Part shown: positions 11,660 to 36,400 of the stretch, one piece after another | Numbering within the stretch: the first letter of the stretch is position 1 | Layout of the letters: every line of letters begins with the position of its first letter | Virus record (IMG/VR): IMGVR_UViG_3300044451_000434 | Coordinates: 62,001-126,000 of that record | Reading direction: 5' to 3' (one strand) | Origin: a virus | Length of the DNA stretch: 64,000 bases | Notes under the pieces: model-generated | The model's input: only the letters and a program-made list of their open reading frames with translations | The model's database searches: none | What the model was told of the DNA's origin: nothing | Position numbers and translations under genes: made by a program

Positions 11660-14600
11660 CTATGCCCTTGCCAAGGTCCTAATGGCCATGGCAAATCCGT
11701 CAATTATGGCTGGAACCACCTGGTCCTTAGCCATGGCGGCAACTTGGCTAGATATGCTGCCAAAAACACTATCATCAAGACGAAGTTGACCAGTCGATGC
11801 AGATGCACCAGCCGTAGACGATGTCGCTGCAGCAGCAGGAGTTGCCGCAGGAGGCGTGCCCACCACAGACCCTGCAGCACCCCCCGCTGCAGCGGCTGCG
11901 ATTGCAGTCTGATCCATTCTGTATTCTATGCTTGCAACACCGTCAGTAGACATTTCAGTGTCCCTGTCAAGCCAAATGTGATGTTCCCGCGCCTGTCTTC
12001 TGTCAATTGTCAAAATGGCTGGAACCAACTGTTTGAGATAATCAGTGATAGCTATCTGTTCCTTAGCTATGGCGGCAACTTGGCTAGATATGCTGTCAAC
12101 AATCGAGTCAGAAACTATGCCTGCTGCTGTTGCAGCTTCTGCACTATTATCAAGACGAAGTTGACCAGTCGATGCAGATGCACCAGCCGTAGACGATGTC
12201 GCTGCAGCAGCAGGAGTTGCCGCAGAAGGCGTGCCCACCACAGACCCTGCAGCACCCCCCGCTGCTGCAGTCTGATCCATAGCGGCTCCCATTCTGTCTG
12301 CATTTAGGCTTGCAACATCGCCAGTTGCCCTGCCAGCTATCTGTTTGAGATAATCAGTGATTTCAGGCATTTGACTGCTAACCAACTCGTTGGTGTAACT
12401 AGCCATGTCCCTAGACCACTCGCCAGCCTGTATCCCACCAACTCCAAATGTGGACATCTCTGCCCCCCGTCCGTCGGCTGCGCCTGTTCGCAAACTGGTG
12501 GGCATGTCTTTTGCAGTCCTGAGAAGAGTCCCTAGGTTTTTCTCTTGGTCAACAACGATTTCCGCAAATACTCCAGCTCCTTCCATCATGGAGCTCAGGG
12601 CATCGAGATAGCCCTCCCTGATCTGCTTTGTCATCTCAAGTTGCTGCTTGATCAGACCGAGACGCGTGGTGTCAGCTTCGTTAAGCTTCTTTTGAGCATC
12701 AGCAGCTGCTTCCTTGAATGCCATAATCTCCCTATTTGCAGCTTCTATTTCTCCCGATTTACCATCGGCTTGAGCCTTGACAAGCTTCTGCTCGGCCTCT
12801 GCGGCTTTGTTGAGAAAATCTTGCTGGGTTTTAGTGAGTGCTGCCATTTCATTTTCAGTAGTTGATATCTGCTCACCAATCGTCTGAACGGCAGCGGCGC
12901 GCATCTCAGCACTGGCCCCAATTCCACTCGCCACACTGTCCATCAGGGATAGTTGAGCCTCAATCTGAGAAACTTCTGACTTCCTGTATTCGGATTCTTT
13001 ATTAAACCTAGCAACGCTAGCATCCAAGATTGTTTTGTTATTGTCTCTAATAGTCTTGGTGACATCATTAGATGCGCTTATTGCCTTTTGACGCTGCTTC
13101 TCAAGCATTGTCAAAACCTGATCAGCATTACCTTTTTTGACGGCCTCTACAACCGCTTCGGCGTCAAGTATTGCCTTTTTTAACTCTTGCTGTGCTGCTT
13201 CCTTTTTTTTCGGGTCTTGCTCAGCGTCAATCAGCTCTTGGGCTTGCTTGACCGTTTCTTTAAACCCGTACTGAAGTTCTTGTGCGGCATTCATTCGATC
13301 TTCAGGATTCTGGAGGGCAATTTGCCCTCTCTGAATAAATCCTAGTCTGGTTGCTTCTATTTCAGCGATCGCCGCCTTTGCCTTCACCTGCCTTTCCATG
13401 CTTTCTTTCATTTGCGAGGAGTACTCAGAATCATTAGCGGACTGATCTCCTATGTATCCACCTATTCCACTAATTTTTCCGAGCATCTCTGCCTGTATGG
13501 TGTACGCTTCGTTGATAGCCGTCACAACATCGCCGTGCACCTTTGCTTGGTCCGTAAGTTGCTCCTGCGCAAGCCTCAGACGATCCAGGGTCTGAAGCCG
13601 TAATGAACCAGTAACCATGCTAGCCAATTCGGCTGTAACGCCAGCTTTCATCGCCTTGTTAATTGCATTCTCCATTTTTTGTTGAGCTAGTTTAGTATTT
13701 ATTCTGCCCCTTTCCATTTTATCGAGGGCATCAGTCACATCTTTTTGATCAAGCATGTATTCCAACATAGCCTTAGCATCTTCCCCGCCTTCCGATGCAG
13801 CCTTCATCATTTCAGACTTAGCCTGAGATAGATCCATACCCTTGGCAAACAATTGTTCAAAAGAAGCAATCGTATCAGCGCTCAATTCTTTCTTCAATGC
13901 GGATGCACCTTCGGTGTCGACGTCCAAGTCTGAAACACCCTTATACCCTCCAGACGTCATCTTTTTCATCATTTCAGCAGTGGCCGCACCAGGGGCTAGG
14001 GTAAGACCCTTTACAAACTCTTGAACAGCAGGAATATTCCCTATCATAGAATACATGATCTTGCTCTCATTTGCAAGAACATTACTAGCCATTGTCGCAG
14101 TTTCCGCAAGACCAAGACGCTTCTTGGCCTGCTCGCTCAATCCTTCAGTGGTTCTCATTATGCTGGCAAGTTGATCTCTGTTGATCTCATTCATCGCATA
14201 CATCATTTCGGCATTTGCTTTTGTGATTTGACCTTGCCTCATGAGCGAATCACTAAGTTTGTCAACATCGGCAGCACCAGCACGTTGAGCAGCCTTAAGC
14301 TTGTCAGCAGCATCAATCATCAACAACTGATCTTCGTATGCTAAGCGCGTTTTCTGACTAAAATCCTCAAGCCTAGTCATATATGCCTTAATCGCCTCTG
14401 AAGTCATGCCAAAGCGATCACCAGCAAACTGCACCACAGCAGCTATCTTTTCCTGCCCAGTGATTGCCACAGGCATATTCATGGCAAGATCCTGCTGTAT
14501 CTTCAACAGGTCTTCGTATGGAAGAGAGAATTGACGAGAAAGATTGGCAGTACTCGCGGCAATTCCGTCGGCAGTTTTACCATACAGTGCAAGAGTGCGC

Positions 14601-14761
14601 TCAGCTCCCACAAGGCTAACATTTATCTTGTTGCCGAACTCCAATAAATTAGACATGGAAAGCCCGAGACCCCCCATGCTTTGAATGGCATTATTTGCTG
14701 CCACGCCCATGTTGGCTAAAGTGCCAGAAATTGCTTCGATTTTGCCTGCAATATCAGTCAA
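11660..14761 (-). CDS. Tape-measure-like tail protein with duplicated Ala/Thr-rich C-terminus
   Basis: 1,033 residues. The predicted start is TTG at 14761 (MTDIAGKIEAISGTLANMG) with AGGCGGA upstream; no better start lies nearby. The protein is strongly helical with long coiled-coil-like segments rich in Ala, Glu, Gln and Lys (residues 100-750), typical of tape-measure proteins that span the tail lumen and set its length. The C-terminal 200 residues are Ala/Gly/Thr/Ser-rich and contain an approximate duplication: AAGGAAGSVVGTP followed by SSTAGASASTGQLRLD occurs twice, 125 codons apart. No predicted membrane segment is strong and no peptidase domain was seen. It follows the chaperone genes, as expected. 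1,033 residues would suit a moderately long tail. Confidence 0.8.
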   Translation of the reverse strand: MTDIAGKIEAISGTLANMGVAANNAIQSMGGLGLSMSNLLEFGNKINVSLVGAERTLALYGKTADGIAASTANLSRQFSLPYEDLLKIQQDLAMNMPVAITGQEKIAAVVQFAGDRFGMTSEAIKAYMTRLEDFSQKTRLAYEDQLLMIDAADKLKAAQRAGAADVDKLSDSLMRQGQITKANAEMMYAMNEINRDQLASIMRTTEGLSEQAKKRLGLAETATMASNVLANESKIMYSMIGNIPAVQEFVKGLTLAPGAATAEMMKKMTSGGYKGVSDLDVDTEGASALKKELSADTIASFEQLFAKGMDLSQAKSEMMKAASEGGEDAKAMLEYMLDQKDVTDALDKMERGRINTKLAQQKMENAINKAMKAGVTAELASMVTGSLRLQTLDRLRLAQEQLTDQAKVHGDVVTAINEAYTIQAEMLGKISGIGGYIGDQSANDSEYSSQMKESMERQVKAKAAIAEIEATRLGFIQRGQIALQNPEDRMNAAQELQYGFKETVKQAQELIDAEQDPKKKEAAQQELKKAILDAEAVVEAVKKGNADQVLTMLEKQRQKAISASNDVTKTIRDNNKTILDASVARFNKESEYRKSEVSQIEAQLSLMDSVASGIGASAEMRAAAVQTIGEQISTTENEMAALTKTQQDFLNKAAEAEQKLVKAQADGKSGEIEAANREIMAFKEAAADAQKKLNEADTTRLGLIKQQLEMTKQIREGYLDALSSMMEGAGVFAEIVVDQEKNLGTLLRTAKDMPTSLRTGAADGRGAEMSTFGVGGIQAGEWSRDMASYTNELVSSQMPEITDYLKQIAGRATGDVASLNADRMGAAMDQTAAAGGAAGSVVGTPSAATPAAAATSSTAGASASTGQLRLDNSAEAATAAGIVSDSIVDSISSQVAAIAKEQIAITDYLKQLVPAILTIDRRQAREHHIWLDRDTEMSTDGVASIEYRMDQTAIAAAAAGGAAGSVVGTPPAATPAAAATSSTAGASASTGQLRLDDSVFGSISSQVAAMAKDQVVPAIIDGFAMAIRTLARA
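11768..11890 (-). repeat. Direct repeat copy 1 in the tape-measure-like gene
   Basis: About 123 bases nearly identical to 12143-12265, exactly 375 bases (125 codons) apart, so the duplication keeps the frame. It encodes the Ala/Thr/Ser-rich peptide around SSTAGASASTGQLRLD. Shorter matches flank it at different offsets (for example the stretch coding QVAAMAK at 11731-11760 against 12065-12095), so the duplication has since been rearranged or eroded. Confidence 0.9.
12143..12265 (-). repeat. Direct repeat copy 2 in the tape-measure-like gene
   Basis: Partner of the copy at 11768-11890, with only a few base differences. Both copies lie in the 3' end of the same gene and code for the same low-complexity peptide. 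Confidence 0.9.
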
Positions 14762-14803: not shown

Positions 14804-14831
14804 CTCACCTCTCCGAGACGAGAGAGGTGAG
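14804..14831 (-). other. Hairpin over the stop codon of the 126-aa tail gene
   Basis: CTCACCTCTC and GAGAGGTGAG form a perfect 10-bp stem with an 8-base loop, overlapping the stop codon at 14805-14807. There is no following T-run on the minus strand, so it is not a standard intrinsic terminator. It could slow decay of, or partly separate, the chaperone and tape-measure parts of the message. Confidence 0.5.
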
Positions 14832-15185
14832 GAATATGGCGGCGTCTTCGGAAAGGCTGCCTATCTTTTCCTCGTTGCAGGGTATTGCGTTACCCTCTGA
14901 GTCTGTGAACGACCAGCCTATCATCATCTTTTTGAACCTAGCCGATCGGAATGTGATGGGATCAAAAACAAGCCTTGATCCATCGTTTCTCATAGAGGAC
15001 TCCTGAATCTTCAGAGAAGCGGCGTATGAAATTGGTCGACACATGACGTGGTGCTGCTGAAAATTACCTTCGCCCAAGGCTGCCAATGCCTCTTCCTTGG
15101 TTTTGAAGAACACTGCTTTACCTGCCTGGAAACCAACCCAGAAATCAATCTTGAACTCGTCCGATTTTGAGATGAATATCGACAT
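14805..15185 (-). CDS. Small protein next to tail-assembly chaperones (126 aa)
   Basis: This ATG ORF has AAGGAT six bases upstream and starts one base after the stop of the frameshift product. It begins MSIFISKSDEFKIDFWVGF. The C-terminal half includes PITFRSARFKKMMIGWSFTD. No known catalytic motif is present. Position between the gpG/gpGT-like chaperone pair and the tape-measure gene suggests a role in tail assembly, either as a third chaperone component or as a minor tail protein. Family not recognised; the tail-assembly role is inferred only from context. Confidence 0.75.
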   Translation of the reverse strand: MSIFISKSDEFKIDFWVGFQAGKAVFFKTKEEALAALGEGNFQQHHVMCRPISYAASLKIQESSMRNDGSRLVFDPITFRSARFKKMMIGWSFTDSEGNAIPCNEEKIGSLSEDAAIFLTSLVSER

Positions 15186-15186
15186 G

Positions 15187-15824
15187 TTAGATCCTTGCTC
15201 CCATCATCATACTGAACACTTTTACTATATCGGCATTTTTTAATCTTGACCCCAACATTGCCATGTTGGAAAAGGCATAAAAATCTGAAACCCTCAGATT
15301 TCTTATGTCTTCTATTGTCCATCCGTAGTGGTGGGCCATTATGTATTCTCTCAGGCGATCAGTCACGAGCGGGATGTCTTCGTCCCGCCACAGGTGACCG
15401 ACCGCCTCTATGGTTTTCCCGGGTCGGGGTCCTCATCTGTAAACATTAATTTTTCGTATGCAGACACCAAGGAATCGAATACATCAGAATCCATCTTTGT
15501 AATGTCGCCATTGTCAAATGACCCTGACTTTTCCCCTTCGTGCCAAGAGCCACAAACCAAGCCAGTCTGTGCCATGAGAGACCTGTAAGCCATAGGGTCA
15601 ATAACATAGTCCCCCTGTATTGGATCGAAGCGCCTGGCGCCCGAAACAACCTGAGCACGCTGACCCCAAGTTACGGTTTTCCATTTACAAGTCACATACA
15701 TGTGCACAAGCGCTCCTGGAGCCTGTCCGTTCCAAGAGCCGACAAGCGACCACCGCCTGCCCTGCTTTTCACTGCGGACAAAACCAGTACATGTGGTGAA
15801 TTCTGCGCCAAAGGGTCCAGTCAT
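15187..15824 (-). CDS. Tail-assembly chaperone, long form made by -1 frameshift (gpGT-like)
   Basis: The upstream 138-residue frame meets a slippery heptamer GGGAAAA at 15420-15414 in phase (G GGA AAA). After a one-base slip the reading continues as ACC ATA GAG through 75 open codons to TAA at 15189-15187. The fused product is 212 residues: 137 from frame 0, then TIEAVGHLWRDEDIPLVTD and onward, ending MMMGARI. The extension is coding-like (REYIMAHHYGWTIEDIRNL) and resembles the T parts of lambda-type G/GT chaperones, which bind the tape measure and recruit tail tube subunits. Its stop is one base from the next ATG. An alternative is a separate 50-residue gene starting at the internal ATG, but the frame is open all the way back to the slip site. 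Confidence 0.8.
15354..15420 (-). promoter_or_regulatory. Programmed -1 ribosomal frameshift signal
   Basis: All three expected parts are present on the minus strand: the heptamer GGGAAAA (15420-15414), a 7-base spacer CCATAGA containing the frame-0 stop (15413-15407), and a strong structure. The outer stem pairs GGCGGTCGGTCAC (15406-15394) with GTGACTGATCGCC (15366-15354): 13 bp including two G-U pairs. Inside it GCGGGA (15388-15383) pairs with TCCCGC (15374-15369). Lambda uses the related heptamer GGGAAAG for its G/GT chaperones. Confidence 0.85.
15408..15824 (-). CDS. Tail-assembly chaperone, short form (gpG-like, 138 aa)
   Basis: Frame-0 product, ATG at 15824 (MTGPFGAEFTTCTGFVRSE), ending DPDPGKP at a TAG seven bases after the slip heptamer begins to be read. 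It lies immediately downstream of the tail tube gene and upstream of the tape measure, the classical position of the G-type chaperone. The C-terminal part is acidic (SFDNGDITKMDSDVFDSL), as is common in these proteins. The ribosome site is weak (AGGTTC), so translation may depend on coupling to the tube gene 20 bases upstream. Family assignment rests on context plus the frameshift signal rather than on a diagnostic motif. Confidence 0.8.
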   Translation of the reverse strand: MTGPFGAEFTTCTGFVRSEKQGRRWSLVGSWNGQAPGALVHMYVTCKWKTVTWGQRAQVVSGARRFDPIQGDYVIDPMAYRSLMAQTGLVCGSWHEGEKSGSFDNGDITKMDSDVFDSLVSAYEKLMFTDEDPDPGKP

Positions 15825-15844: not shown

Positions 15845-16849
15845 TTATAGAGGGAATGGGTGTGGCTGATCTCCCATACTCCACGGTTCACCACCATAAT
15901 CAGATATCGCAAGATACCTGCCGGCGTCGGTACCTAAAGAAACAAATGCCATGGGTGTCTCGATGATTCCGTTGGTGAGTTCTGTGCTGTCCAACTGGAA
16001 GACGCAGCCGAAGAACTTCACAAGAGTTGTCGGGGTTGGTCCGATTTTGGCCTGCAACATAAGATTGACATGCGGGATATTTTCGCCCGGATCATCTTCC
16101 CGATTTTTTGCCTGATCGGCCAAGGTTGATGGGCGACCAAAAAATGTTATACTACCAGTTATCTTACGCTTCTTTGGCAGGATGTCGTATGGAGCCAACT
16201 GCCCCGCGATGACATACACCTCTTCCGACTGGTTGTCAATTGTTACATTGAATTGCTTAATTAATTTGAACTCATTTTGATTGACACCACCATTGTTCAT
16301 GTTCTCCATGCCGATGGTTACATCGTTGTAAGAGATAACACGGAGAGGAGATTCCGCATCTGCAGTTGTTAAGTTGGGAAGAGCATCCGCTGCTGTTGCT
16401 GCCCGACGACCCCTGCCTCGGAATTCAGCAGTGCAATCCAAGGTACCATTGGCAGATATATCCAGTGTTATTTTGTCAACGACCATGTCTTCGTATACAA
16501 ATGTGAAACCAGAGTGGTAATGAACCACCACATCAACAGTTTTCGCGAATTTGCCATCTGCCGTTCTCCTGCCTGCAGCAGTCCACAACTCCGCGAAGGT
16601 GTCGAGGTTTCCGCCATCCTGTGCCTTATCTAGGGTGAACTTTACTTGGCCTGATGCCTTAAAATTGCCCATCTTGTATCTGGTCATGTCAATGCTGCCG
16701 TCGATATCCTCAACTGGTTCAATTGACTGTTCACCCTTGATGTTGCAAGTCGTTACACGCAGGATACTCCCGTTGATGGCCACCACGCCAGGGAATCCAG
16801 CACGCACGGGAAAATTTTGGTTACTAATAGGTTCCTCAAATGATGGCAT
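15845..16849 (-). CDS. Major tail tube protein (probable)
   Basis: 334 residues, ATG at 16849 with AGGT eight bases upstream. The pattern is that of tail tube subunits: ITGSITFFGRP and ASGQVKFTLDKAQDGG strands, a VRVISYNDVTIG segment and a region (residues 60-160) alternating long strands with short loops such as TVDVVVHYHSGFTFVYEDM. Tube proteins stack as hexameric rings around the tape measure. The gene precedes the frameshifted chaperones and follows the connector genes, exactly as in siphovirus maps. No tail sheath gene precedes it. Assignment is from fold-like pattern and order; no strict signature residue exists for the family. Confidence 0.75.
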   Translation of the reverse strand: MPSFEEPISNQNFPVRAGFPGVVAINGSILRVTTCNIKGEQSIEPVEDIDGSIDMTRYKMGNFKASGQVKFTLDKAQDGGNLDTFAELWTAAGRRTADGKFAKTVDVVVHYHSGFTFVYEDMVVDKITLDISANGTLDCTAEFRGRGRRAATAADALPNLTTADAESPLRVISYNDVTIGMENMNNGGVNQNEFKLIKQFNVTIDNQSEEVYVIAGQLAPYDILPKKRKITGSITFFGRPSTLADQAKNREDDPGENIPHVNLMLQAKIGPTPTTLVKFFGCVFQLDSTELTNGIIETPMAFVSLGTDAGRYLAISDYGGEPWSMGDQPHPFPL

Positions 16850-17275: not shown

Positions 17276-18361
17276 TCATAATGATGTTACACTTTCTACA
17301 TCAAGTTTCCCTGCTTCCCTTCTTGAGATTAATGGCAGCAATTTGATAAAAATATCAAGATGGTTGGGAATAGCCGAAAGATCGCAAGGTCGCGAGGGTT
17401 CTGATAGGGACGATAAGGCCACCAATGTCTCTGAAAGAGCCCCTGGAATCGGTATATGCAGCAACTTGCCTGGCGCAGACATGAACGGGACAGATGGAAG
17501 GAGATGGCTGCATCCAAGGGCCCGGAAGACTGGGCAGTCGGTCACCACCGAATCAACCCCAAATTTGGCGGCTTCAACCACAGAAACCGCAGAAGACGGG
17601 CATAGGACAGGGAAAATCGCCGCCCAAGCGCCAGCAAGCGTCTGCGCGTACAGGAGGTCGTCCACCCCGTACTCCACAGAAGAGGCCGCCCAAGCCTGCC
17701 TAGAGCCTGCTGGTAGTCTCCCACGACCAAGGTCAAAATCTCCAGGATCAGCCCCATTTGTTCCGATCACAAGCTCCCATCCACCGCTAGACAGACCAGA
17801 CTTCTCCCATTCCGACAGAAGGTATGAAAAATTATTAGACTCAAAGTTTCTCATGGGTGCAAAAAAATACTTCCCCCTCTTGATCCCGTGCACATCCTGC
17901 GAAAGCATGGCGGTTGACGGTATAGAAACTTGAACATTTTTTGCACCAGATCTGGTAGCTTGGTTTGCTGCCATCCTGCTGCAGGCTATGACCGCATCAG
18001 CTAGAGGACATGAATCGTAGGGTCTGTCAACATGTCTTTCGCAGTCGTTCAATATGTGCAACCATCCAAAATCGCCAATCCCGACCACCCTACAGGCTGC
18101 GACATGGGCGGCATCTGCGTCATCCCCAAAAGATATCACCAGATCTGGTTTCGCTGATTCGCAAAATGCGCCAAAGTTGACCGCTGCCGCAACCCCTCTT
18201 GGCAACGGCAAGCACCTTGGGATGTCTAAATCAGCAGATAGATCAAAAAACACCCCAACATGTTCGGGAAAAGATTTTTGAACATGTCGCCATATGACAT
18301 CGCCAATTCTTGAGTTGGCGGTCAACAGATGAGGGCTGCAACCTGTCACGGCAACAATCAT
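17276..18361 (-). CDS. GT-B-like glycosyltransferase within the tail operon
   Basis: I place the start at the ATG at 18361 (MIVAVTGCSPHLLTANSRIG, 361 aa), because it overlaps the previous stop as TGATG and has GGAGG upstream; the frame is open further to 18430. A Rossmann-like N-terminal half (VISFGDDADAAHVAACRVV, GWLHILNDCERHVDRPYDS) is followed by ADAVIACSRMAANQA, typical of the GT-B linker region. A C-terminal half ends in SSAVSVVEAAKFGVDSVVTD, resembling the GT4 donor-site motif without its first Glu. It probably transfers a sugar to a virion protein, DNA or host surface component; substrate unknown. The presence of such a gene between tail genes is unusual. Confidence 0.65.
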   Translation of the reverse strand: MIVAVTGCSPHLLTANSRIGDVIWRHVQKSFPEHVGVFFDLSADLDIPRCLPLPRGVAAAVNFGAFCESAKPDLVISFGDDADAAHVAACRVVGIGDFGWLHILNDCERHVDRPYDSCPLADAVIACSRMAANQATRSGAKNVQVSIPSTAMLSQDVHGIKRGKYFFAPMRNFESNNFSYLLSEWEKSGLSSGGWELVIGTNGADPGDFDLGRGRLPAGSRQAWAASSVEYGVDDLLYAQTLAGAWAAIFPVLCPSSAVSVVEAAKFGVDSVVTDCPVFRALGCSHLLPSVPFMSAPGKLLHIPIPGALSETLVALSSLSEPSRPCDLSAIPNHLDIFIKLLPLISRREAGKLDVESVTSL

Positions 18362-19269
18362 CACGGAGGCTGCCTCCAAGAATCGCCAAATCCGTATGGA
18401 GGGTGCATCTGGGCTTCGGTTGCACTCCAACTTATTTTAGCAGCCTTCAGCAATGTGTCCTTATGGACGAATCCATACTCAATATTTCTTGGCCAACATT
18501 TGTACAAAAATCTTTCAACAAGTATGGCCTTGGGGTCATTTACTACAAGATACTCGTTTTTTGCAGGCTCAGACAGCCTGATCACCTGACCGTCGACGAT
18601 CTCAGCCACATGGCAATCTTCAGATATGAATACACTGTCCAACAAAATGAACTGACCTGCAGTAATGCCGTCTGTATCTGCAAGCCTCACAAAAACATCA
18701 CCCTGCTCAATATCAGCTATGATTGACACATATCCCTTATCGCCAGCAATAGCAACAGGATTTTTCTTTAGACCTGTTTCTATAATGTTGGTAAGATGTA
18801 AAAGATACTCATAGCCCTCCTCTTGGGCGGCATCCGCAACATAGCAGACGATGTCAACCTCGTATGTTTCGTTGCTTACCTCCAAACCAATCCATTCAGA
18901 GTTCTTGCTCTTGCCATTTATCGTTATTGCAGGGTATTTTATGATAGTGTTTGGATCCCCAAGATATATACCCTGAATAAATTGCCCCTTCACAGCCTTG
19001 CGCAAATTGCAGCTCCCAACATTCCAATCAGAAAATCTGACACCATCTTGAAGAACTACATGCGTATCATCAGGAATCTCAACAACAATATGAGGATATT
19101 CAAATTCTTCACCATCGGTGATCAGCACATCATCGCCAACCTTGAAGCGATGAGAAGTTCTCAGCGTCAAAACATTGTCACCAACAGCTATGGGCTCCGT
19201 TATGGGAGATTGAAAGTTAACCCATCTGTGTATAATCTGTCGGAGACTAGTGAGAACCTTATACATCAA
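18361..19269 (-). CDS. Tail-completion or terminator-like protein (302 aa)
   Basis: Starts ATGATG at 19269, overlapping the previous stop, and ends in a TGATG junction with the glycosyltransferase gene. Residues 25-90 form a strand-rich domain (VGDDVLITDGEEFEYPHIVVE). Residues 125-165 contain YEVDIVCYVADAAQEEGYEY followed by LLHLTNIIETGLKKN, the strand-then-helix arrangement seen in small tail terminator/completion proteins. A second similar beta domain follows (AGQFILLDSVFISEDCHV). It sits between connector-type genes and the tail tube, consistent with a head-tail joining role. Assignment is tentative. Confidence 0.6.
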   Translation of the reverse strand: MMYKVLTSLRQIIHRWVNFQSPITEPIAVGDNVLTLRTSHRFKVGDDVLITDGEEFEYPHIVVEIPDDTHVVLQDGVRFSDWNVGSCNLRKAVKGQFIQGIYLGDPNTIIKYPAITINGKSKNSEWIGLEVSNETYEVDIVCYVADAAQEEGYEYLLHLTNIIETGLKKNPVAIAGDKGYVSIIADIEQGDVFVRLADTDGITAGQFILLDSVFISEDCHVAEIVDGQVIRLSEPAKNEYLVVNDPKAILVERFLYKCWPRNIEYGFVHKDTLLKAAKISWSATEAQMHPPYGFGDSWRQPP

Positions 19270-19525: not shown

Positions 19526-20251
19526 TCACATCTCAGGAATGTCTCTAGTCGAATCCTGATCAGTATTGGGTAGTGCATATCTACTCAGAAGCGTGGGGTT
19601 GGCAAATCTGCTTGAGATTCTATTCTGACCATGAAGAACAGTTCTCCCATTCAATATATTGCTCAACATGATGCGTGCCTGATTTCTCAACCCTTTGCCA
19701 TATTCGCTGTTTCCAGTCGCGCTCATGTAAGAGAAGTACCTGTCAAATAGACTGGCGACACAGAGACGTGCTGATGTCCCCGGGACAGGATCGGGGAATT
19801 TCACGCGCAGCAATCGTGATTCTGCGGCTGAAAAATCCACCAAGAAAGGTTCATTGACGATGAGGTTTGTTCCGTTCGCAACATCAGCGACTGTTCTTCT
19901 CTCATTAATAAATCCATTTGTCAACACAATCACATCACCAGGAACGAATACATTTGCATTTGGACTCATGATGACAACATCTGTGTTGTAGGGATCAATG
20001 TCTACCACAAGTTCAAATTCCACATCACTTATCTCTCTCAGTGGAGTGCTGTACATGGAGCTCAAAATAGAGTTTATGTACTGGTCGGCGAGAACAATGT
20101 GCTGATCAAGAATCTCGTCGGTTATCACATTCCCCTTGAGCATGTTACCAAAGTTGACGAGATCGCCTTTCTGAGTGAGCGTTGGATCTGTTGCAGTCGT
20201 AAAAGACTGGGCAAAAACACGCTTGCAAAGGTCTCGCGTTGCATATCCCAT
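19526..20251 (-). CDS. Head-tail connector-like protein (241 aa)
   Basis: ATG at 20251 shares its A with the stop of the actin-like gene (TGATG). It begins MGYATRDLCKRVFAQSFTT. Residues 45-75 (DEILDQHIVLADQYINSIL) resemble the helical core of DUF1320/gp6-like head-tail adaptors, which form a ring under the portal. A middle beta insertion follows (VVIMSPNANVFVPGDVIVLT), then helices (ARLCVASLFDRYFSYMSAT). The order in the operon (before tail completion and tube genes) supports an adaptor. The Cys and Arg residues show no obvious metal site. Moderate confidence. Confidence 0.6.
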   Translation of the reverse strand: MGYATRDLCKRVFAQSFTTATDPTLTQKGDLVNFGNMLKGNVITDEILDQHIVLADQYINSILSSMYSTPLREISDVEFELVVDIDPYNTDVVIMSPNANVFVPGDVIVLTNGFINERRTVADVANGTNLIVNEPFLVDFSAAESRLLRVKFPDPVPGTSARLCVASLFDRYFSYMSATGNSEYGKGLRNQARIMLSNILNGRTVLHGQNRISSRFANPTLLSRYALPNTDQDSTRDIPEM

Positions 20252-21423
20252 CAGACCTGATCCCTAGTTATAATTCCCTTGACAAGTCTATTCTTCACAA
20301 TCTGAGCAGATGTTAAAAGCCCAGAGCAAACCGCGTTTCGCGGGTCTGCAGCCTTGCGAACATCGCCAATTTTGAACGGCAAATTTATTGAAGACATGAT
20401 TCTTTCCAATTTCTTATCGAAACCGTTTGGCATAGAAGTGCCTCCGGCGATCACCACATCAAGAGGCTTATCAAACTGACTCTTAACTTCTGTAAACTTC
20501 TTAGCAAACAAACCCACGACATGACGGAGCATAGCATCGTAATATGCGTCAAGGGCAAAAGCTGTGTCATTGTCTTCGTCTATATTTTTAAAATCAAGAA
20601 CTCGCTCTTTGAAGTCAATCACCTGAGACATAGGTACTGCAGTCTGCTCTGAAACCTGTTTATCTACCCAATCTCCGCTCCTGCTGACAGACATACCAAG
20701 AACCTGCATGCCCTTGTATGCCAAAACGCAGTTTGCCCTACCAGCACCAAATGACATTCCTATTCCACTGAACGGCACTTCTGTACCGTCATCAAGAACA
20801 ACAGACGGCCTCTCGCTGAGGATGACAGCAAGACCTTCTTCTATGACCTTTACATTCCAGCCAAGGCGGGTAAACATGGCCTTGAGGCGAGCTGCATGGA
20901 AAGTACTGTCCTGCCCACCGTCAGCGCACGGACTCGACACGCATGTGCAAACAACGGAATTTTCGTCAGGGGCCTTACCAAGAGAAGATTCTATAATGCC
21001 AGAAAGAACCAAACTCTTCTTTGGTTCATCTCTATTGAGCACTCCATCTTGAAGAGGACGACGAATCTCCACCGAACCAGGAAATAACTTGGCAACCTGC
21101 ATGGAGTCATCTCCAACGACAAAATACTGCATTCCGTCGTTTACATATCTCCAGCCATTTCTAGTCAAGATCTCTTCCAATTCTGATGAATATGGGATTT
21201 CTACAAATGCGTTCCTGACCGCAGAGACGCTTATCTTGTCATCAATGAGCTCTGCTGTCTGAAAAAACATAGTTCCCACATCAACTCCCACTGCTCGGGC
21301 GTGTGACTCTTGCGCCTGTACCGATTCAGCCTTGTTGGCAGTTTGCACAGGGGTATTCGGATTCACTGACGACCGAAGCTTTAGGGAGGCAAAATTCTGC
21401 ATGGCTTTTTCCTTGGCACTCAT
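20251..21423 (-). CDS. Actin/MreB-fold (ASKHA) ATPase
   Basis: 390 residues with the marks of the actin/Hsp70 superfamily: a phosphate-1 loop VGVDVGTMFFQTAEL (residues 45-59), a connect-like helix VIEEGLAVILSE (193-204), a phosphate-2 loop GIGMSFGAGRANCVLAY (220-236) and an adenosine loop DVVIAGGTSMPNGF (322-335). The first 40 residues look like a flexible extension (Gln/Ala/Ser-rich). It is flanked by TGATG overlaps on both sides: with a 175-aa unknown gene before it and a connector-like gene after it. Related proteins polymerise for plasmid segregation (ParM, AlfA), cell shape (MreB) or phage positioning. Its role here is unknown; being embedded in morphogenesis genes is unusual. Confidence 0.85.
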   Translation of the reverse strand: MSAKEKAMQNFASLKLRSSVNPNTPVQTANKAESVQAQESHARAVGVDVGTMFFQTAELIDDKISVSAVRNAFVEIPYSSELEEILTRNGWRYVNDGMQYFVVGDDSMQVAKLFPGSVEIRRPLQDGVLNRDEPKKSLVLSGIIESSLGKAPDENSVVCTCVSSPCADGGQDSTFHAARLKAMFTRLGWNVKVIEEGLAVILSERPSVVLDDGTEVPFSGIGMSFGAGRANCVLAYKGMQVLGMSVSRSGDWVDKQVSEQTAVPMSQVIDFKERVLDFKNIDEDNDTAFALDAYYDAMLRHVVGLFAKKFTEVKSQFDKPLDVVIAGGTSMPNGFDKKLERIMSSINLPFKIGDVRKAADPRNAVCSGLLTSAQIVKNRLVKGIITRDQV

Positions 21424-27679: not shown

Positions 27680-28441
27680 TTATATTTCCATCATTTTATT
27701 GACTATGCCTCTTGAATCCATATCGGAACTAGCAGCAATAATATTTGCAGCAACACCAGCAACAAAAGCATTGGCAAAACTAGAGCCTATAGAATCCATA
27801 AATCTGTCTCCAACGGTCATGGTATCATATGTCCAATTAGGCATGGTTATCTTGATCCCGTCAGCAGATGGGGATTTAACTTCGCCTACTGCGACTGAAA
27901 TAACTCCAGAAGCCGAAGACGGGAAGGCATAAGAACGCGTATCAGAAACCGCAGAAAATATCAATATTTCTTTTGCAAGCAATTTTTTAATCACTTCTGA
28001 AGCGAGATGCTCTTCTTCAGAAGATGTTAGGCTGCAAACCACAATATCGCACCTTGAAGCCATGCACCACAAAAGTCCTCCGACAAGAGCAGATATATCT
28101 CCCGACCTGTCAGACTTTGCACACTTGGCGTGAAAGAAAGTGGCTTCATGACAAAGACCAGGAATACCTGAGGCATGAGATGAAGATAAAATGCCCGATA
28201 CAGAAGTGCCGTGACCATCTCGGTCATATGGCTCTTCGCCATTAACCATACTAACCTGCCTACTCTGATTGTTTAACTTGATATCTCTATGTGTGGGAGC
28301 ACCCGTGTCTACTATTCCGATTTTGAGACCTGAACAGTCAGTTCTTTCCACCCTAAATCCTCCATGTGCTGGCAGCACAACCTGTCTGACTCTAGGTGAT
28401 ATCCTAAGTCTTCCATCTGGAGGGGAATCACCCAACACCAT
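27680..28441 (-). CDS. Subtilisin-like serine protease (S8 family)
   Basis: Start chosen at the ATG at 28441 (MVLGDSPPDG) with GAGGAG ten bases upstream; a TTG at 28462 is in frame. In 253 residues the S8 triad is visible: Asp45 in GIVDTGAPTHRDI, His77 in DRDGHGTSVSGI and Ser221 in SIGSSFANAFVAGVAA. The normal oxyanion-hole Asn phrase (AAGN) reads FSAVSD at residues 162-167, so that Asn is replaced. No signal peptide or long propeptide is seen, so it should act in the cytoplasm or in the virion. It might process virion proteins or attack host proteins. The family is sure; activity is less so because of the oxyanion change. Confidence 0.9.
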   Translation of the reverse strand: MVLGDSPPDGRLRISPRVRQVVLPAHGGFRVERTDCSGLKIGIVDTGAPTHRDIKLNNQSRQVSMVNGEEPYDRDGHGTSVSGILSSSHASGIPGLCHEATFFHAKCAKSDRSGDISALVGGLLWCMASRCDIVVCSLTSSEEEHLASEVIKKLLAKEILIFSAVSDTRSYAFPSSASGVISVAVGEVKSPSADGIKITMPNWTYDTMTVGDRFMDSIGSSFANAFVAGVAANIIAASSDMDSRGIVNKMMEI

Positions 28442-29153
28442 CGGACACAATCTCCTCTTCAACCATTTCTACAAAACTAAAAACAGGGCTACAAGATCTT
28501 GAAGACCTGAGCAGAAGGGCTCTTCCACCACCCGAAGCACAGCCCCATGCACACACAGGATCATCTGTAACCAAAGCAGAGACGGTTCTGCTCTCTTCAA
28601 TTCTCTTCACTAAACTCTTGCGAACAGGCACATGCCAAAGTCTGCCTGTCTCAAAAAATTTTGACTTTACAGCCATGCGAAGGGAGTCATTGGAGATTGA
28701 AACACCCTGCCTGTCATGCATTTTTGTAGAAAACTTGGTGTGGAAACTTGGCAGGACAACATCATCAATATGAAATGCCTTAGACAAAGAATACAGAATA
28801 GGTTGCCCCTCAAGATATGCAGAAAGTATATGAGAAAACCTTGCCTCTGTTGCCACTATAGATGCACCATCAAGAACCAAGCCATAGGCGCCAAGACTTA
28901 ACGCATGACGACAGTCAACCACGGAGTCAGAAACGCACACAATCTCATCAAACTGATCCCTAGAAATAGTGTGCAGATGAGCAAAATATGGCTTACCGGG
29001 AAGAATTTTTTGAAGTCCGTCCTCCCATCCAGCTGAGGATGAAATTGTGAATTCACACTGTCCACCATAGATGCGCTTCATGATTTGAAGCAATGAAGAA
29101 GTTACAAGTATCCCCCATTCAGATGGAGATGGAATCAGGCATATTTTTTTCAT
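28428..29153 (-). CDS. Hypothetical protein between glycosyltransferase and protease genes (241 aa)
   Basis: ATG at 29153 (MKKICLIPSPSEWGILVTS); ends 14 bases inside the subtilase gene. The alternating strand-helix pattern at the N-terminus (EIVCVSDSVVDCRHALSLGA, YGLVLDGASIVATEARF) suggests a Rossmann-like fold, perhaps a glycosyltransferase or a related half-domain, but no donor-site motif is found. The C-terminus CAWGCASGGGRALLLRSSRS is Gly/Arg-rich. Function unknown; it could work with the adjacent glycosyltransferase. Confidence 0.65.
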   Translation of the reverse strand: MKKICLIPSPSEWGILVTSSLLQIMKRIYGGQCEFTISSSAGWEDGLQKILPGKPYFAHLHTISRDQFDEIVCVSDSVVDCRHALSLGAYGLVLDGASIVATEARFSHILSAYLEGQPILYSLSKAFHIDDVVLPSFHTKFSTKMHDRQGVSISNDSLRMAVKSKFFETGRLWHVPVRKSLVKRIEESRTVSALVTDDPVCAWGCASGGGRALLLRSSRSCSPVFSFVEMVEEEIVSDGVG

Positions 29154-29154
29154 G

Positions 29155-29742
29155 TCATAGCCTTATTTCGGCTGCGTTTCTGATCCCGCTAGGTAAAATA
29201 TCATCATCTGTTCCTGTGTCAACATCATCTTTCCTTCGTATGGAGCCTCGAGATTTCCTACTTGCTTTTTGAGCCTCTTTCTTGAGTTTTAATTGCTCAC
29301 TGTGCGCCTGACGCATAACTGACAATTCTTGCCCAGACAACCTAACGAGATGACCCGAAGATATCAGAGACAGAATCTGAGCAGGAATATCACCATATTC
29401 TTTTTTGATGAATGATGCAGATTTTCCGTCTATTTTGCCATCAAACTTTAAAGGAGGCTGCAACTTGCTCAATATCAAACATCCATCTTTGGCAGGAGCT
29501 ATAAAGTCTTTTTCTTGCGACACCTGAGTATCAAGAGAGACAACTCTAGAAATAGCAGGATTAGACTGCGGGACAGATACGGTTCCAAGAACTAACTCTT
29601 TGAGAGTAATCAGGCCGCCATCAACTACGGCAGGCACGTTCATCAACTCTGGATGAACCATTACCCTATCGATTGGGAGAGAATAGACTTTTTCTCCCAT
29701 AAACACAACCCTGCCAAAATCTCTGTCGTAAAATGCTTTCAT
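29155..29742 (-). CDS. Hypothetical protein after the GT4 gene (195 aa)
   Basis: ATG at 29742 (MKAFYDRDFGRVVFMGEKV) overlaps the glycosyltransferase stop as ATGA, which favours it over the longer frame to 29793. The N-terminal half is strand-rich (YSLPIDRVMVHPELMNVPA). The C-terminal 60 residues are strongly basic and helical (KLKKEAQKASRKSRGSIRR), then acidic. No family recognised. Tight coupling implies joint expression with the glycosyltransferase. Confidence 0.7.
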   Translation of the reverse strand: MKAFYDRDFGRVVFMGEKVYSLPIDRVMVHPELMNVPAVVDGGLITLKELVLGTVSVPQSNPAISRVVSLDTQVSQEKDFIAPAKDGCLILSKLQPPLKFDGKIDGKSASFIKKEYGDIPAQILSLISSGHLVRLSGQELSVMRQAHSEQLKLKKEAQKASRKSRGSIRRKDDVDTGTDDDILPSGIRNAAEIRL

Positions 29743-31085
29743 AATTTTGTTACCAAGCCTTTGAATTGCGAAACAACGGCGTCCGCAGAGCACATGTCAG
29801 CCAATTTTGACGCTGCTCTTGAAGCCATCAAGTTTCTCTTTTTAGGGGATGTAGACCAACATATTCTCATGGACGCACCAAGTCTTTGAATAAATTCTAC
29901 ACTCACCGTATCCGCCATGACGGTGCCATCCCATAAAATTGTACCAGTTGTACCATTTTTAATAGTTGTCCTGTCAACATCGACCAAAAATGCTGAAGAA
30001 TCATCAAGGAAATCAAGTTGACCACCAAACCTTGGAGCAACTGAAGGTATCCCGCACATGGCTGCTTCTGCATACGGAAGACAAAATCCTTCTCCCCTTG
30101 CAGCTAGAACGCATGCATCTACAGACCTGTACAACTTGGCAAGATCTGCTTCAGTAATGTTTTTAGACATTCTGACCACGAGTGGAGGATGCTTTTTGCC
30201 ACAACTTGACACCAAATCAGAAACCACATCTGCGAATTTTTTTTGAGCTTCTTCTCCGCGCTTGTCTCTATGCGCCACGATGAGACATACATCATCTGAT
30301 GGATCAAATTCCTTAAGAAATGACTCAATTACATTGGTGCCAACCTTTCTAGAGCTAATTCCAAATATAGTTAAAAACTTGAAACTTGGCAATGGAGATG
30401 AGAATTGATATTCTGCTCCTTTTGCACAAAAAATGTCATTATTAATGTGTGGACTCAAAACTCCCGCGTCAATATCATACTTCCCAAAAGTGTCACAGCA
30501 GAATCTACTTACACACCAAACCATTTCATATTTCTTTGCAGAAGCTGCAACAGCAACAGGCAGAGTTTCTGACTCGATAGTAGTGTAGAGCACCCTCATG
30601 CCAGATGGACCTGGAGAGCCAAATGTGGGTACCACACTATTTATATCAAGCATGCCTTGGCATCTTGGCCTTATGGGCAGTCCGCATCTTGCATCTTCGT
30701 ACAAAAGCTGTGGTTTCCCAAGGTCTACTGGGTCAACACTTACTGAAATGTTTTTTGTAGTAAGTGCTTTGACCAAACCTCTATTGACCTTTCCATATCC
30801 TGAATAGTCTAAAAACTGGCCTCTGATTACGACATCATCAAGCATGGCATCACCAGATGGCTTCTTTGCTTTCGCTGACATTTTTGCCAATGCTGCCTGT
30901 ATCCCATCGGCTTGGTCATGATCCAACACAACCACATAACCCTTTGCAACAGCCGAACGAAGAGATGGCGCTGATCTAACACGATCTGATGATATCTCAA
31001 ATTTATCACCACTATCACCAGCAGGGATGCGATCATCCCATTCGGGAACATATACAGGTATGCCAAGGACATTTCTTACTATCAT
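29739..31085 (-). CDS. GT4-type glycosyltransferase with N-terminal accessory domain
   Basis: I start at the ATG at 31085 (MIVRNVLGIPVYVPEWDDR, 448 aa). The first 75 residues form a small beta domain (VRSAPSLRSAVAKGYVVVL) similar in pattern to the 175-aa gene beside the actin-like ATPase. A GT-B core follows: acceptor-side motif GQFLDYSGYGKVNRGLVKAL, a linker WCVSRFCCDTFGKY, FLTIFGISSRKVGTNVIES, and the donor-site motif ARGEGFCLPYAEAAMCGIP with the E-x7-E spacing of retaining GT4 enzymes. It likely uses a nucleotide sugar; acceptor unknown. This is the first gene of a long leftward operon. Confidence 0.88.
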   Translation of the reverse strand: MIVRNVLGIPVYVPEWDDRIPAGDSGDKFEISSDRVRSAPSLRSAVAKGYVVVLDHDQADGIQAALAKMSAKAKKPSGDAMLDDVVIRGQFLDYSGYGKVNRGLVKALTTKNISVSVDPVDLGKPQLLYEDARCGLPIRPRCQGMLDINSVVPTFGSPGPSGMRVLYTTIESETLPVAVAASAKKYEMVWCVSRFCCDTFGKYDIDAGVLSPHINNDIFCAKGAEYQFSSPLPSFKFLTIFGISSRKVGTNVIESFLKEFDPSDDVCLIVAHRDKRGEEAQKKFADVVSDLVSSCGKKHPPLVVRMSKNITEADLAKLYRSVDACVLAARGEGFCLPYAEAAMCGIPSVAPRFGGQLDFLDDSSAFLVDVDRTTIKNGTTGTILWDGTVMADTVSVEFIQRLGASMRICWSTSPKKRNLMASRAASKLADMCSADAVVSQFKGLVTKL

Positions 31086-31109
31086 GGTATATTTATCGGA
31101 AAATAAATT

Positions 31110-31706
31110 ATGCCTATTGATCAATCAGGATATTCAGACGAGAATATAATATTTGGCGGATTTGGAAATGTAAAATTAAGTGTCGGATTTTCAAAAACAT
31201 GTAGACTTGAGCCAATATGCACTGATGCTATAGCTGACGGATATTCTTACATATCTTTGGGGGGGTTCAGAATAGGAACATCAACCTACGGGCAGGGAAG
31301 AGCATTGTGGGTGTACCGTCCTGCAAATATGACTCTAGATGATGTATATGTAACAATATGGAAAGGTGTAGAATTTGAGGTTGCAGCAGACACTAATCAT
31401 AAATCTTTCTGCTCATACAATATCGTCTACAACTCAGAGATCCCAAATTCTAACAATATGATCAGACTAGGAGGAGGCAGTATATCTCTTGATGTATCGG
31501 GAAAAATTTTGTGTGTAGATAAAGGATTTCCAGAAGATGAAAAAGAAGCCATCATAGGCTCTAGGCTAATAACACTCGGAAGATTTGACAACATGTGGGC
31601 GATATCGCTCTATTCTGTTTTTCCGCAAAGTTCATCTTCTAGCAGCGGTCATGACTCGGATCCGCCTGACGCTAATCCGGAAGATCCTCCTTTTAAGGAG
31701 GGTTGA
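31110..31706 (+). CDS. Lone plus-strand gene, hypothetical (198 aa)
   Basis: ATG at 31110 (MPIDQSGYSDENIIFGGFG), 24 bases from the divergent glycosyltransferase start, with GGAAAA upstream. The product is strand-rich (YSYISLGGFRIGTSTYGQG, NMTLDDVYVTIWKGVEFEV) with a Ser/Asp/Pro-rich tail (SSSSSSGHDSDPP). No signal peptide or membrane segment. It is the one convincing plus-strand gene inside the leftward region and sits between the head and tail transcription units. A surface or decoration protein, or a small transferred (moron-type) gene, are both possible. Confidence 0.75.
   Translation: MPIDQSGYSDENIIFGGFGNVKLSVGFSKTCRLEPICTDAIADGYSYISLGGFRIGTSTYGQGRALWVYRPANMTLDDVYVTIWKGVEFEVAADTNHKSFCSYNIVYNSEIPNSNNMIRLGGGSISLDVSGKILCVDKGFPEDEKEAIIGSRLITLGRFDNMWAISLYSVFPQSSSSSSGHDSDPPDANPEDPPFKEG
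31686..31702 (+). terminator. Short hairpin at the end of the plus-strand gene
   Basis: CCTCCTT and AAGGAGG can form a 7-bp stem over the last codons of the plus-strand gene. An AT-rich stretch follows, but no compact T-run. A weak terminator at best. Confidence 0.3.
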
Positions 31707-33421: not shown

Positions 33422-33439
33422 GGTCTTCACTTGAAGACC
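33422..33439 (-). other. Hairpin over the stop of the protease/scaffold gene
   Basis: TGAAGACC and GGTCTTCA can pair with a 2-base loop around the stop codon at 33427-33429. A T-run lies about 15 bases beyond on the minus strand, too far for a standard terminator. A partial terminator or mRNA end signal is possible. Confidence 0.35.
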
Positions 33440-36400
33440 CGACGCAGTACGTTGCTCTCAGTCTGATCCGCCAACTCCACCTGCTGCTGCAGGCGGAACA
33501 TGGACGCGATCTTGGACTTGAGATCTCCATACGCATTACGCTCACTCTTCTGCTCGGGGATCACAAAAGCCGTTTCTGACCCTGCCGAAGCCGTCTTCAG
33601 GCCCTTGGCGACGACACCCTCTGCGAACATTGCCTTCTCAAGGTCCATGAGCTGAGCCACCTTGTAGCCCATCAACTCCTTGGCTTTTGCAGGAAGATTG
33701 TCTGCAGAGATCATCCCCGCAGCCACCATCTTGCCAGCAACCTTGAGAGCCAACTCGCTGGAATCTTCACCAGCCTTCTTTTTTGCATAGCCGCCAACTG
33801 GACCGGATTTGCCGGAGCCAACTTGGCCGCCTGTCATGAGATTCTGCTTCTCTGCACCGTTCTGACCGCCAACCGGAATGGAAGGCAGGCTCAGACCTGC
33901 AGACTCGTTGCCCTCTGGAACTTCAAGTTCTTCCATGCCCTCAAGACCCTCAGAGGTGCCCACGTCGCCAAGATCTGCCTGGTTCTGCACCAGTTCAGTC
34001 TTGAGACCAAGTTCAGATGCGAGTTTGGCCAAGGAGTCGGAGAATGCTGCCTTCCGATTATCAAGTTTGCTAGAGGCAGACTTTCCTGATCCCTGAACGC
34101 CGCCTGTGGCCATGTTGCCCTTCTCACCCTTGATCTTGTCACCCTTGAAGCTAGGGCCGTCAACGGGAACCTTGGGCATGTCTGCATCGAAGCCGTCGCC
34201 GTGCTCGCTGCTGAGCGGCTTGCCGCCATTCTCAACGACCTTTAGCGACTTCAGACCAGCCTTGCCAGTCATGACGGTGCCAAGTTCTGGCTGCTTCTGT
34301 GCATGACCTATCTCCACAGCCTTCTCTCCCGCCTCCTTGGTAAGGGCAGATGCAAGGCGGGATATGTCAAGTTCCAACTTGCCTACGCCAACGACCCTGC
34401 CACGACGTAGAGCCATAGCCTCCTTCTCAATCTCATAGGATTTGTCTGACTTCGAACTAGCCTCATTTGGAGCAGTCTTTTTCATGACTGCCTCTTTCTC
34501 TTCTTTTTCTCCATCAGAATAATCACGGCCTTCGGCTCCAACCATGTGTGAAACCTCGGCAGGCTCTTCTGCATCCATGTCTTCAGTGTCTTCGGTGTCT
34601 TCAGTGTCTTCAGTGTCTTCAGTGTCTTCGGTGTCTTCAGTGTCTTCAGTGTCTTCAGTGTCTTCAGTGTCTTCAGTGTCTTCAGTGTCTTCAGTGTCTT
34701 CAGTGTCTTCAGTGTCTTCAGACCCATCCATGTCAAAATCATCAGACATCTCTGGCTCCATATCGACTTCCGTGTCCATGTCGACATCGTCTTCACCATG
34801 AGCCTTAGCTAGAGCCTTCTGTATCTGCTCTTCAATCTGCTCAAGAACATCTGGGGTCACGTCGAGGCTGATGGAAACTGTCTTTTGATTGTCATTCTCA
34901 AAACCATCCTCGCCATCGAATGGATCTGATTCTTCCATTTCGTCATCTCCGTGTGATTCTGTTTCGCCATCTTCTTCTGTCAGATCTTCAGCGAGGTATT
35001 CCTCATCCTCAGCATAGGCAGCCTTGATCATCTCACAGGCGCTAGAAGCCTGCTTAATACCCATGCCTTCGCGAACGAGATCCTCAACACATTCGCACAT
35101 GGGATCGGGCTGCGCCCAAGATGAAGCAACTTTGTCAGCCACAGTCGTGCTGTATATGTTTGCACTAGCGAGCTTGCTGCACACGCAATCAGGCAGTGTG
35201 TTTCCACGACAGGGGCCGCTGAGCGCCACAGAATCAGCGCCGTATCTCCTAGCGAGTTTTTCCATGCACTCATTCATTGGGAACTCACCATGCATGGTGA
35301 ATGCCTTCTTGAATGATCCGATGGCGGTGTCTTCTTTAGAGGCTATCTTGACATGTTTTACAGCACCCATGCTCAATGCCTTGTTCAGAACTTCAGCCTT
35401 CTTTACAACAGACATGCTGTCGAATTTTGCACGATCAATTCCCACAGAAGTGAGAGCGTAATTGATCGATGCACGCTTGCGGGCGCAACTGCTGCATGAT
35501 GCCTTCTTGAACTCTGGCACCCACTCCCACTGGGCATACGCGTCCTTGGGAGAAGTGGCTGATGCAGCAAGACGAACCTTGTACATCTGCCCAGAGTCCA
35601 AACACATCCATGTTTCATTGTCGAGCTTAACTGTATTTCTATTTCCAGTGATTGGACTCACAGATCCTAGAGGACCTTTGCTAGCGATCTTCCTGAGTGT
35701 TTCTGGAGTGAGGCGCGTGGATGCAGCAACAGGTGGTAGTCCGGGCGCACCTGCAGGAGGCATGCCGGGCGGCATTTCGGCGCCAATCCCGCCAAGACCC
35801 TTGTCTGGCTCTGCAGGGTTGTCGCCGCTAACATCATCTTGGTCAACATCTCCGTCAGTAATTTTGTCAAGAAGAGATGCGTCTGGAATAACCTTGATTG
35901 TGAATCCACTGCCACAACCTGGACCCTTGCACTGGCTCTTACCGCCAGAAACATCAACATCTTGGTTGCCGCACACGACGCAAACCGCAGCAGGCGGCTT
36001 GGCTTTGCCGGGTTGGTCATACCCAGCATCAAGACCGAGAGGATCCTGAGGAGCTGGAGCAGGAGCTGCTGGCATACCAGCGGGAGCTGCTGGTGCTGGA
36101 GGGGCGCCTGTCAGCGCCTCTGCGCCAGGAATCCCTGGAGGCATAGCGCCAGGAACTGCTGCGCTAGCACCCATGCCTGCCGGGTTGAGAGCGCTAGGCA
36201 TGGCACCTCCAACCTGAGCCTTCTTCTCAAGCCGCTCAATCTCTTCAAGCAATTTCGCACGGCGAGATATCCTTTCCTCGCGGGAATCAAATGAATCAAC
36301 AGAAGTAGTTGCGACATTCGTCTTCAATGACTTATTTTTCATGTTCTCCTCATCGGATGTAAACTTGTGGTATGCATCCTCCTCTTCGGGTGTCAGCATG

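What the first reader, a model, noticed from the sequence alone, without database searches (positions are those of the whole stretch)
15354..15420. Complete -1 frameshift signal joining tail-assembly chaperone frames
The heptamer GGGAAAA is in the right phase (G GGA AAA), followed after 7 bases by a 13-bp outer stem (two G-U pairs) and an inner 6-bp stem. The -1 frame is open for 75 codons and stops one base before the next ATG. The stop of frame 0 lies inside the spacer. This is the conserved gpG/gpGT arrangement with a strong, two-tier stimulator; the pause structure looks unusually long for this gene family.
Basis: partly seen in the sequence, partly recalled or inferred. Interest (0 to 1): 0.75.

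Follow-up and report, generated by a model that had tools for sequence, protein, structure and literature searches.

The report
Frameshift signal in tail-chaperone gene pair
In a large uncultured phage, a slippery GGGAAAA sequence followed by a very strong RNA hairpin almost certainly makes some ribosomes slip back one base and fuse two tail-assembly helper proteins; this trick is classic for tailed phages, but here it recurs, with ever-changing hairpin sequences, across a whole group of large phages.

Summary
GGGAAAA (15420-15414) is in phase (CC G|GGA|AAA); a 6-nt spacer ends in the frame-0 stop TAG; then a 14-bp outer stem (two G-U) and a 7-bp inner stem follow (-41.7 kcal/mol, z -4.9). The -1 frame runs 75 codons to a TAA one base before the next ATG: a 212-aa fusion, between the tail tube gene (PF18906) and the likely tape measure. 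The closest relative (89% and 99% identical proteins) keeps 112 nt around the signal with one change, in the hairpin loop: the longest such stretch of 13.3 kb. Thirteen more, highly diverged relatives have the same gene order and an in-phase heptamer (GGGAAAA, GGGAAAC, AAAAAAA, AAAAAAC) in the short overlap; in most a stem of 7-14 bp starts 4-9 nt downstream, with different sequence but kept pairing. One relative encodes a single in-frame fusion. Verdict: programmed -1 frameshifting that makes gpG/gpGT-type tail assembly chaperones; a new member of a known kind. New side finding: the following gene is a diverged copy of the G-like protein throughout the clade.

The parts
15408..15824 (-). frame-0 ORF, G-like tail assembly chaperone, 138 aa, stop TAG at 15408-15410
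   Evidence: homologues in 14 relatives
15431..15434 (-). GAGG, possible internal Shine-Dalgarno-like element 10 nt 5' of the heptamer (same spacing as remembered for dnaX)
   Evidence: sequence; unchanged in the close relative; also simply encodes part of an acidic linker, so function is only inferred
15414..15420 (-). slippery heptamer G_GGA_AAA, in phase with frame 0
   Evidence: replaced in relatives by GGGAAAC, AAAAAAA or AAAAAAC in phase
15408..15413 (-). 6-nt spacer CCATAG, containing the frame-0 stop TAG
15394..15407 (-). outer stem, 5' arm AGGCGGTCGGTCAC (14 bp, two G-U)
15383..15389 (-). inner stem, 5' arm GGCGGGA (7 bp)
15375..15382 (-). apical loop CGAAGACA; holds the only difference to the close relative (15379) within 112 nt
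15368..15374 (-). inner stem, 3' arm TCCCGCT
15353..15366 (-). outer stem, 3' arm GTGACTGATCGCCT
15187..15420 (-). -1 frame from the slip codons (GGG AAA ACC...) to stop TAA; T-like extension, 75 codons after the slip
   Evidence: pN 0.005 against pS 0.228 to the relative; profile hits in 9 further records
14805..15185 (-). 126-aa gene, diverged paralogue of the frame-0 chaperone, present in the same place in the relatives
   Evidence: hhalign frame-0 profile against this family: probability 99%, E 6.9e-18
15845..16849 (-). major tail tube protein (PF18906 Phage_tube_2, phrog_290), upstream neighbour
11660..14761 (-). probable tape measure protein, 1033 aa, downstream neighbour
   Evidence: size, position and coiled-coil-like sequence; no profile match

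Best explanation
This is a programmed -1 ribosomal frameshift signal in the tail assembly chaperone locus of a large tailed phage with siphovirus-like tail genes. Most ribosomes read gene G in frame 0 through G_GGA_AAA and stop at the TAG one codon later, making the 138-aa G-like protein. A minority, held up when the 14-bp stem reaches the mRNA entry of the ribosome, re-pair tRNA-Gly and tRNA-Lys one base back (GGG AAA) and go on for 75 codons, making a 212-aa G-T fusion. By analogy with lambda, many G and a few GT molecules coat the tape measure protein and recruit tube subunits, then leave. Shown here: the anatomy, its phase, its conservation, protein-level selection on the -1 frame. Inferred: that slippage happens, how often, and the roles of the two products.
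For: In-phase heptamer, 6-nt spacer, 14+7 bp stem, z -4.9. Nearest relative: 112 nt with one change, in the apical loop; synonymous difference 1/19 sites over the signal against 37/84 upstream in frame 0 and 10/29 in the -1 frame after the stem. -1 frame under strong protein-level constraint, 11 synonymous against 1 nonsynonymous differences; its stop changed TAA to TGA and was kept. Thirteen diverged relatives (-1 part 11-36% identical to the window) all have a frame-0 ORF, a -1 overlapping ORF and an in-phase heptamer inside an overlap of 5-21 codons; per-codon rate of such heptamers elsewhere 0.005. Helices near the heptamer beat shuffles, Fisher p about 1e-11 over 13 loci; ten of the helices pair fully with their own partner arm over 8 bp but only 42% with other members' arms, 5' arms 29% identical. 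Gene order tube-G-T-paralogue-tape measure in all. Several relatives' -1 parts match phrog_9001 'tail assembly chaperone' (best E 3e-5). One relative (L140) encodes G and T as one uninterrupted ORF.
Against: No proteomics, ribosome profiling or reporter data. The window's own proteins match no chaperone family. In relatives L131, L133 and L139 the downstream helix is weak or not clearly better than shuffles. The Fisher p and the heptamer product treat relatives as independent, which they are only in part. Bacillus phage G and two other GenBank relatives of the capsid protein gave no match for the T-like part, so the locus could not be tied to a cultured phage.
Confidence: 0.93

Rival explanations
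1. The -1 ORF is a separate gene started inside or after the stem (GTG 15366 or ATG 15339), with no frameshift; the hairpin merely controls access to that start.
For: ATG 15339 follows GAGAG at a plausible distance, and other phages have a free-standing T-like ORF with the same LAxEYGWxIEYI motif and its own ATG, without a heptamer (L159-L178).
Against: No start with a Shine-Dalgarno sequence is conserved at the head of the -1 ORF in relatives, whose ordinary genes carry clear AAGGAG motifs; in L155/L131 and L156/L136 the first possible start lies at or after the conserved EYGW motif. Codons between slip and first start are conserved as protein across families (GKxxxA...). In-phase heptamers in every overlap would be unexplained. 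A relative has a continuous fusion.
Confidence: 0.04
2. Transcriptional slippage on the run, not ribosomal slippage, makes the fusion.
For: Several relatives have runs of 8-9 A at the site (L132, L133, L134, L138, L142), which RNA polymerase can slip on (general knowledge).
Against: The window's site has only four A and three G; the stem begins 6 nt after the heptamer as ribosomal signals need (review PMC7618472: usually 5-9 nt); GGGAAAA and GGGAAAC members share the architecture.
Confidence: 0.02
3. Assembly error or decayed gene: one continuous G-T gene broken by an indel.
For: L140 shows that a continuous version exists.
Against: Same arrangement in two further near-identical contigs and in 13 diverged relatives, with heptamer and stem, and a near-zero nonsynonymous rate.
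Confidence: 0.01

Closest known systems
Phage lambda G/GT tail assembly chaperone frameshift (G_GGA_AAG), Levin 1993; Xu 2004, 2013, 2014; reviewed in PMC5009743
   Same: Position between major tail protein and tape measure; short G, T extension in the -1 frame; G_GGA_AA heptamer near the 3' end of G, frame-0 stop soon after.
   Different: No detectable sequence similarity; heptamer ends in A; a strong stem starts 6 nt downstream; a second G-like paralogue follows T.
Mycobacteriophage Bxz1 group (Zeenon) annotated joined tail assembly chaperone
   Same: Distantly related major capsid protein (26.7%); joined chaperone before the tape measure.
   Different: Contractile-tail module (sheath annotated), different chaperone; no hit to the T-like profile.
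phrog_9001 'tail assembly chaperone'
   Same: Profile match to the -1 part of several relatives, best E 3e-5.
   Different: The window's own -1 part does not reach the threshold.
E. coli dnaX -1 frameshift signal
   Same: Heptamer plus downstream stem-loop, and a possible SD-like element about 10 nt upstream (description of dnaX signal in PMC3711429).
   Different: Different gene, heptamer and purpose.

Membership tests
gpG/gpGT-type tail assembly chaperone with frameshift | Lies between major tail protein gene and tape measure gene | tested here: met
   PF18906 tube upstream; 1033-aa probable tape measure downstream, with one gene between; same in relatives
gpG/gpGT-type tail assembly chaperone with frameshift | Short ORF overlapped near its end by an ORF in the -1 frame | tested here: met
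gpG/gpGT-type tail assembly chaperone with frameshift | Slippery heptamer in phase inside the overlap, conserved in relatives | tested here: met
gpG/gpGT-type tail assembly chaperone with frameshift | The -1 extension is a real protein segment | tested here: met
   pN/pS 0.005/0.228; homologues
gpG/gpGT-type tail assembly chaperone with frameshift | Sequence match to a known chaperone family | tested here: inconclusive
   none for the window proteins; relatives' -1 parts match phrog_9001
gpG/gpGT-type tail assembly chaperone with frameshift | Chaperone fold | not tested
gpG/gpGT-type tail assembly chaperone with frameshift | Both products made in a set ratio, needed for tails, absent from virions | not testable with these tools
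   needs experiment
-1 programmed ribosomal frameshift signal | X_XXY_YYZ heptamer in phase | tested here: met
-1 programmed ribosomal frameshift signal | Stimulatory structure 5-9 nt downstream | tested here: met
   6 nt, 14 bp, z -4.9
-1 programmed ribosomal frameshift signal | Suppressed synonymous variation over the signal | tested here: met
   rests on one divergence
-1 programmed ribosomal frameshift signal | Measured frameshifting | not testable with these tools
   needs reporter or mass spectrometry

The most novel reading that the evidence does not exclude
A clade of large phages keeps a strong-stem version of the tail chaperone frameshift whose stem sequence turns over almost completely while its position and pairing are kept, together with a duplicated G-like chaperone; in at least one member frameshifting was replaced by an in-frame fusion, perhaps because the duplicate supplies the free G. 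That would be a natural test of why two products in a ratio are needed.
Probability: 0.35. Interest if true: 0.5.

Novelty: new member of a known kind. Interest (0 to 1): 0.35.

Why it matters
It extends the tail-chaperone frameshift to an uncultured clade of large phages (records up to 548 kb) with head genes like those of Bacillus phage G, where no library model called it in the window phage. The stems, unrelated in sequence but alike in place, give good natural material on what a bacterial stimulator must keep. The paralogue of G and the single-frame relative make it possible to ask whether the G to GT ratio can be supplied in another way.

Tried and rejected
GenBank phages by DNA and protein: no match. 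Pfam, PHROGs, NCBIfam on window proteins: no chaperone match. TerL-related G005 (173 kb) shares the head module but no tube or T part was found. T-like profile in Bacillus phage G, Tunturi_5, LR745208 and Zeenon: none; phrog_290 tube there: none. Second in-phase heptamer with a long stem, in TerL at 50980: heptamer not kept in relatives, judged chance. Out-of-phase GGGAAAA at 15535: irrelevant. CCCGGGA at 15423 (overlapping, in phase) was not preferred: its shifted pairing is poor and relatives do not keep it. Genome-contig scan with the T part: nothing. Reading the GAGG element as a stimulator: left open, since the acidic linker codons alone explain it.

Full report
What is in the sequence. 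The window is bases 62001-126000 of a 164,107-base IMG/VR virus record. The feature lies on the minus strand. Read 5' to 3', a 138-aa ORF (15824-15408) ends GAC CCG GGA AAA CCA TAG. The heptamer GGGAAAA (15420-15414) is split G|GGA|AAA in that frame, as tandem -1 slippage requires. After six bases, the last three being the frame-0 stop, comes AGGCGGTCGGTCAC...GTGACTGATCGCCT, 14 bp with two G-U pairs, and inside it GGCGGGA-CGAAGACA-TCCCGCT. The -1 frame continues for 75 codons to a TAA one base before the ATG of the next gene. The MFE of 91 nt is -41.7 kcal/mol, z -4.86, with no shuffle as good. Of 181 in-phase X_XXY_YYZ heptamers in the window's ORFs of at least 100 aa none has a better stem.

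Close relatives. Two nearly identical IMG/VR contigs encode the same locus (L002, L003). Frame 0 is 89% and the -1 part 99% identical in protein. Along 13.3 kb of alignment, the stretch 15447-15334 (112 nt, one mismatch) is the longest of its kind; the next is 77. The single change is in the eight-base apical loop. Synonymous difference is 37 of 84 sites in frame 0 upstream, 1 of 19 in the -1 frame through the stem, and 10 of 29 after it; the -1 frame has one nonsynonymous difference in 183 sites. So the -1 frame is selected as protein, and the signal is selected as nucleotide sequence. This rests on one evolutionary split.

Distant relatives. A scan with the major capsid protein gave 80 contigs of a clade of large phages, whose capsid protein is 50.5% identical to that of Bacillus phage G. 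Fifteen of 40 records tested have a PF18906 tube gene, and a profile of the -1 part hits just downstream of it in nine of them. Reading those regions, and one more found by the T part (L182), gives thirteen distinct diverged members (L129-L134, L136-L139, L141, L142, L182; L135 nearly equals L134). In every one a G-like ORF of about 135-160 aa is overlapped in the -1 frame by a T-like ORF, and the overlap of 5-21 codons contains an in-phase heptamer: GGGAAAA (L129-L131), GGGAAAC (L139, L141), AAAAAAC (L182), AAAAAAA (the rest). In-phase heptamers elsewhere in these loci occur at 0.005 per codon, so each overlap would hold one by chance with probability 0.03-0.11 (the loci are not fully independent).

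The stem. The best helix near the heptamer has 7-14 bp and starts 4-9 nt downstream, most often 6; eleven of the thirteen loci then tested (the window and twelve relatives) beat dinucleotide shuffles at p of 0.04 or less, combined p about 1e-11. L131 and L133 do not. In L132, L134 and L136 the partner arm lies 63-78 nt away. In ten members, including L182, the arms are fully paired over 8 bp with their own partner but only 42% with other members' partners, and the 5' arms are 29% identical: the sequence has turned over while pairing and place stayed. The window's outer stem is the longest, but long outer stems are the rule here, so 'unusually long' applies to the clade rather than to this phage.

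Rivals. Independent start of the -1 ORF is possible in the window at ATG 15339, but no such start with a Shine-Dalgarno motif is kept in relatives, whose ordinary genes have clear ones, and codons upstream of any start are conserved as protein. Free-standing T-like ORFs do exist in other phages. A broken gene is excluded by the number of independent genomes. Transcriptional slippage is conceivable for relatives with eight or nine A, not for GGGAAAA. L140 carries G and T as one ORF without a heptamer; its T part matches the profile at E 3.8e-5, its G part only weakly at E 0.003. It shows that the two frames belong to one polypeptide and that frameshifting can be lost.

What it is. In lambda, gpG and about one thirtieth as much gpGT are made through G_GGA_AAG; G binds the tape measure and T binds the tube subunit (review PMC5009743). 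The present locus has the position and architecture of that system. By sequence the tie is weak: the window's proteins match no chaperone family, while -1 parts of relatives match phrog_9001, tail assembly chaperone, at up to E 3e-5. Assignment as chaperone is thus by architecture and by weak homology through relatives. Fold comparison could not be made, since the structure predictor was closed.

An extra feature. The gene after the T part (15185-14805, 126 aa) has counterparts in the relatives and is a diverged paralogue of the frame-0 protein: profile comparison gives probability 99% and E 6.9e-18. So the clade carries a G-like protein twice, once with a frameshift extension and once without. 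Whether the second copy also binds the tape measure is unknown.

Verdict. A programmed -1 frameshift signal of a tail assembly chaperone, well supported by comparative evidence, not yet by experiment; a new member of a known kind.

Noticed in passing
window 14805-15185 (-): Gene after the chaperone is a diverged paralogue of the frame-0 chaperone throughout the clade (hhalign E 6.9e-18): a tandem duplication of a G-like protein.
   Followed up: partly
L140 (1265-1855): A relative encodes the G-like and T-like parts as one uninterrupted 197-codon frame without a slippery heptamer: loss of frameshifting in the same gene order.
   Followed up: partly
window 20251-21423 (-): Strong match (E 1.5e-57) to Pfam Volactin, named after an archaeal (Haloferax) actin homologue, here in the structural gene cluster of a phage.
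   Followed up: no
window 27680-28462 (-): Subtilisin-like protease (PF00082, E 1.7e-13) among virion genes.
   Followed up: no
window 29739-31124 (-) and 17276-18430 (-): Glycosyltransferase-like ORFs inside the structural gene cluster (PF13692 E 2e-7 for the first; a weak, sub-threshold match for the second).
   Followed up: no
window 34578-34721: Sixteen copies of a 9-base repeat coding for (EDT)n in the 1904-aa ORF 33427-39141.
   Followed up: no
L159-L178: Other phages have a free-standing ORF with the same LAxEYGWxIEYI motif as the T part, with its own ATG and no heptamer.
   Followed up: partly
L010 / G005: A 173-kb relative shares the whole head module (capsid protein 77%) but no matching tail tube was found: head and tail modules appear to be exchanged in this clade.
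   Followed up: partly
window 50980 (-): In-phase AAAAAAA with a 16-bp G-U-rich stem inside TerL; the heptamer is not kept in relatives, so probably chance.
   Followed up: yes
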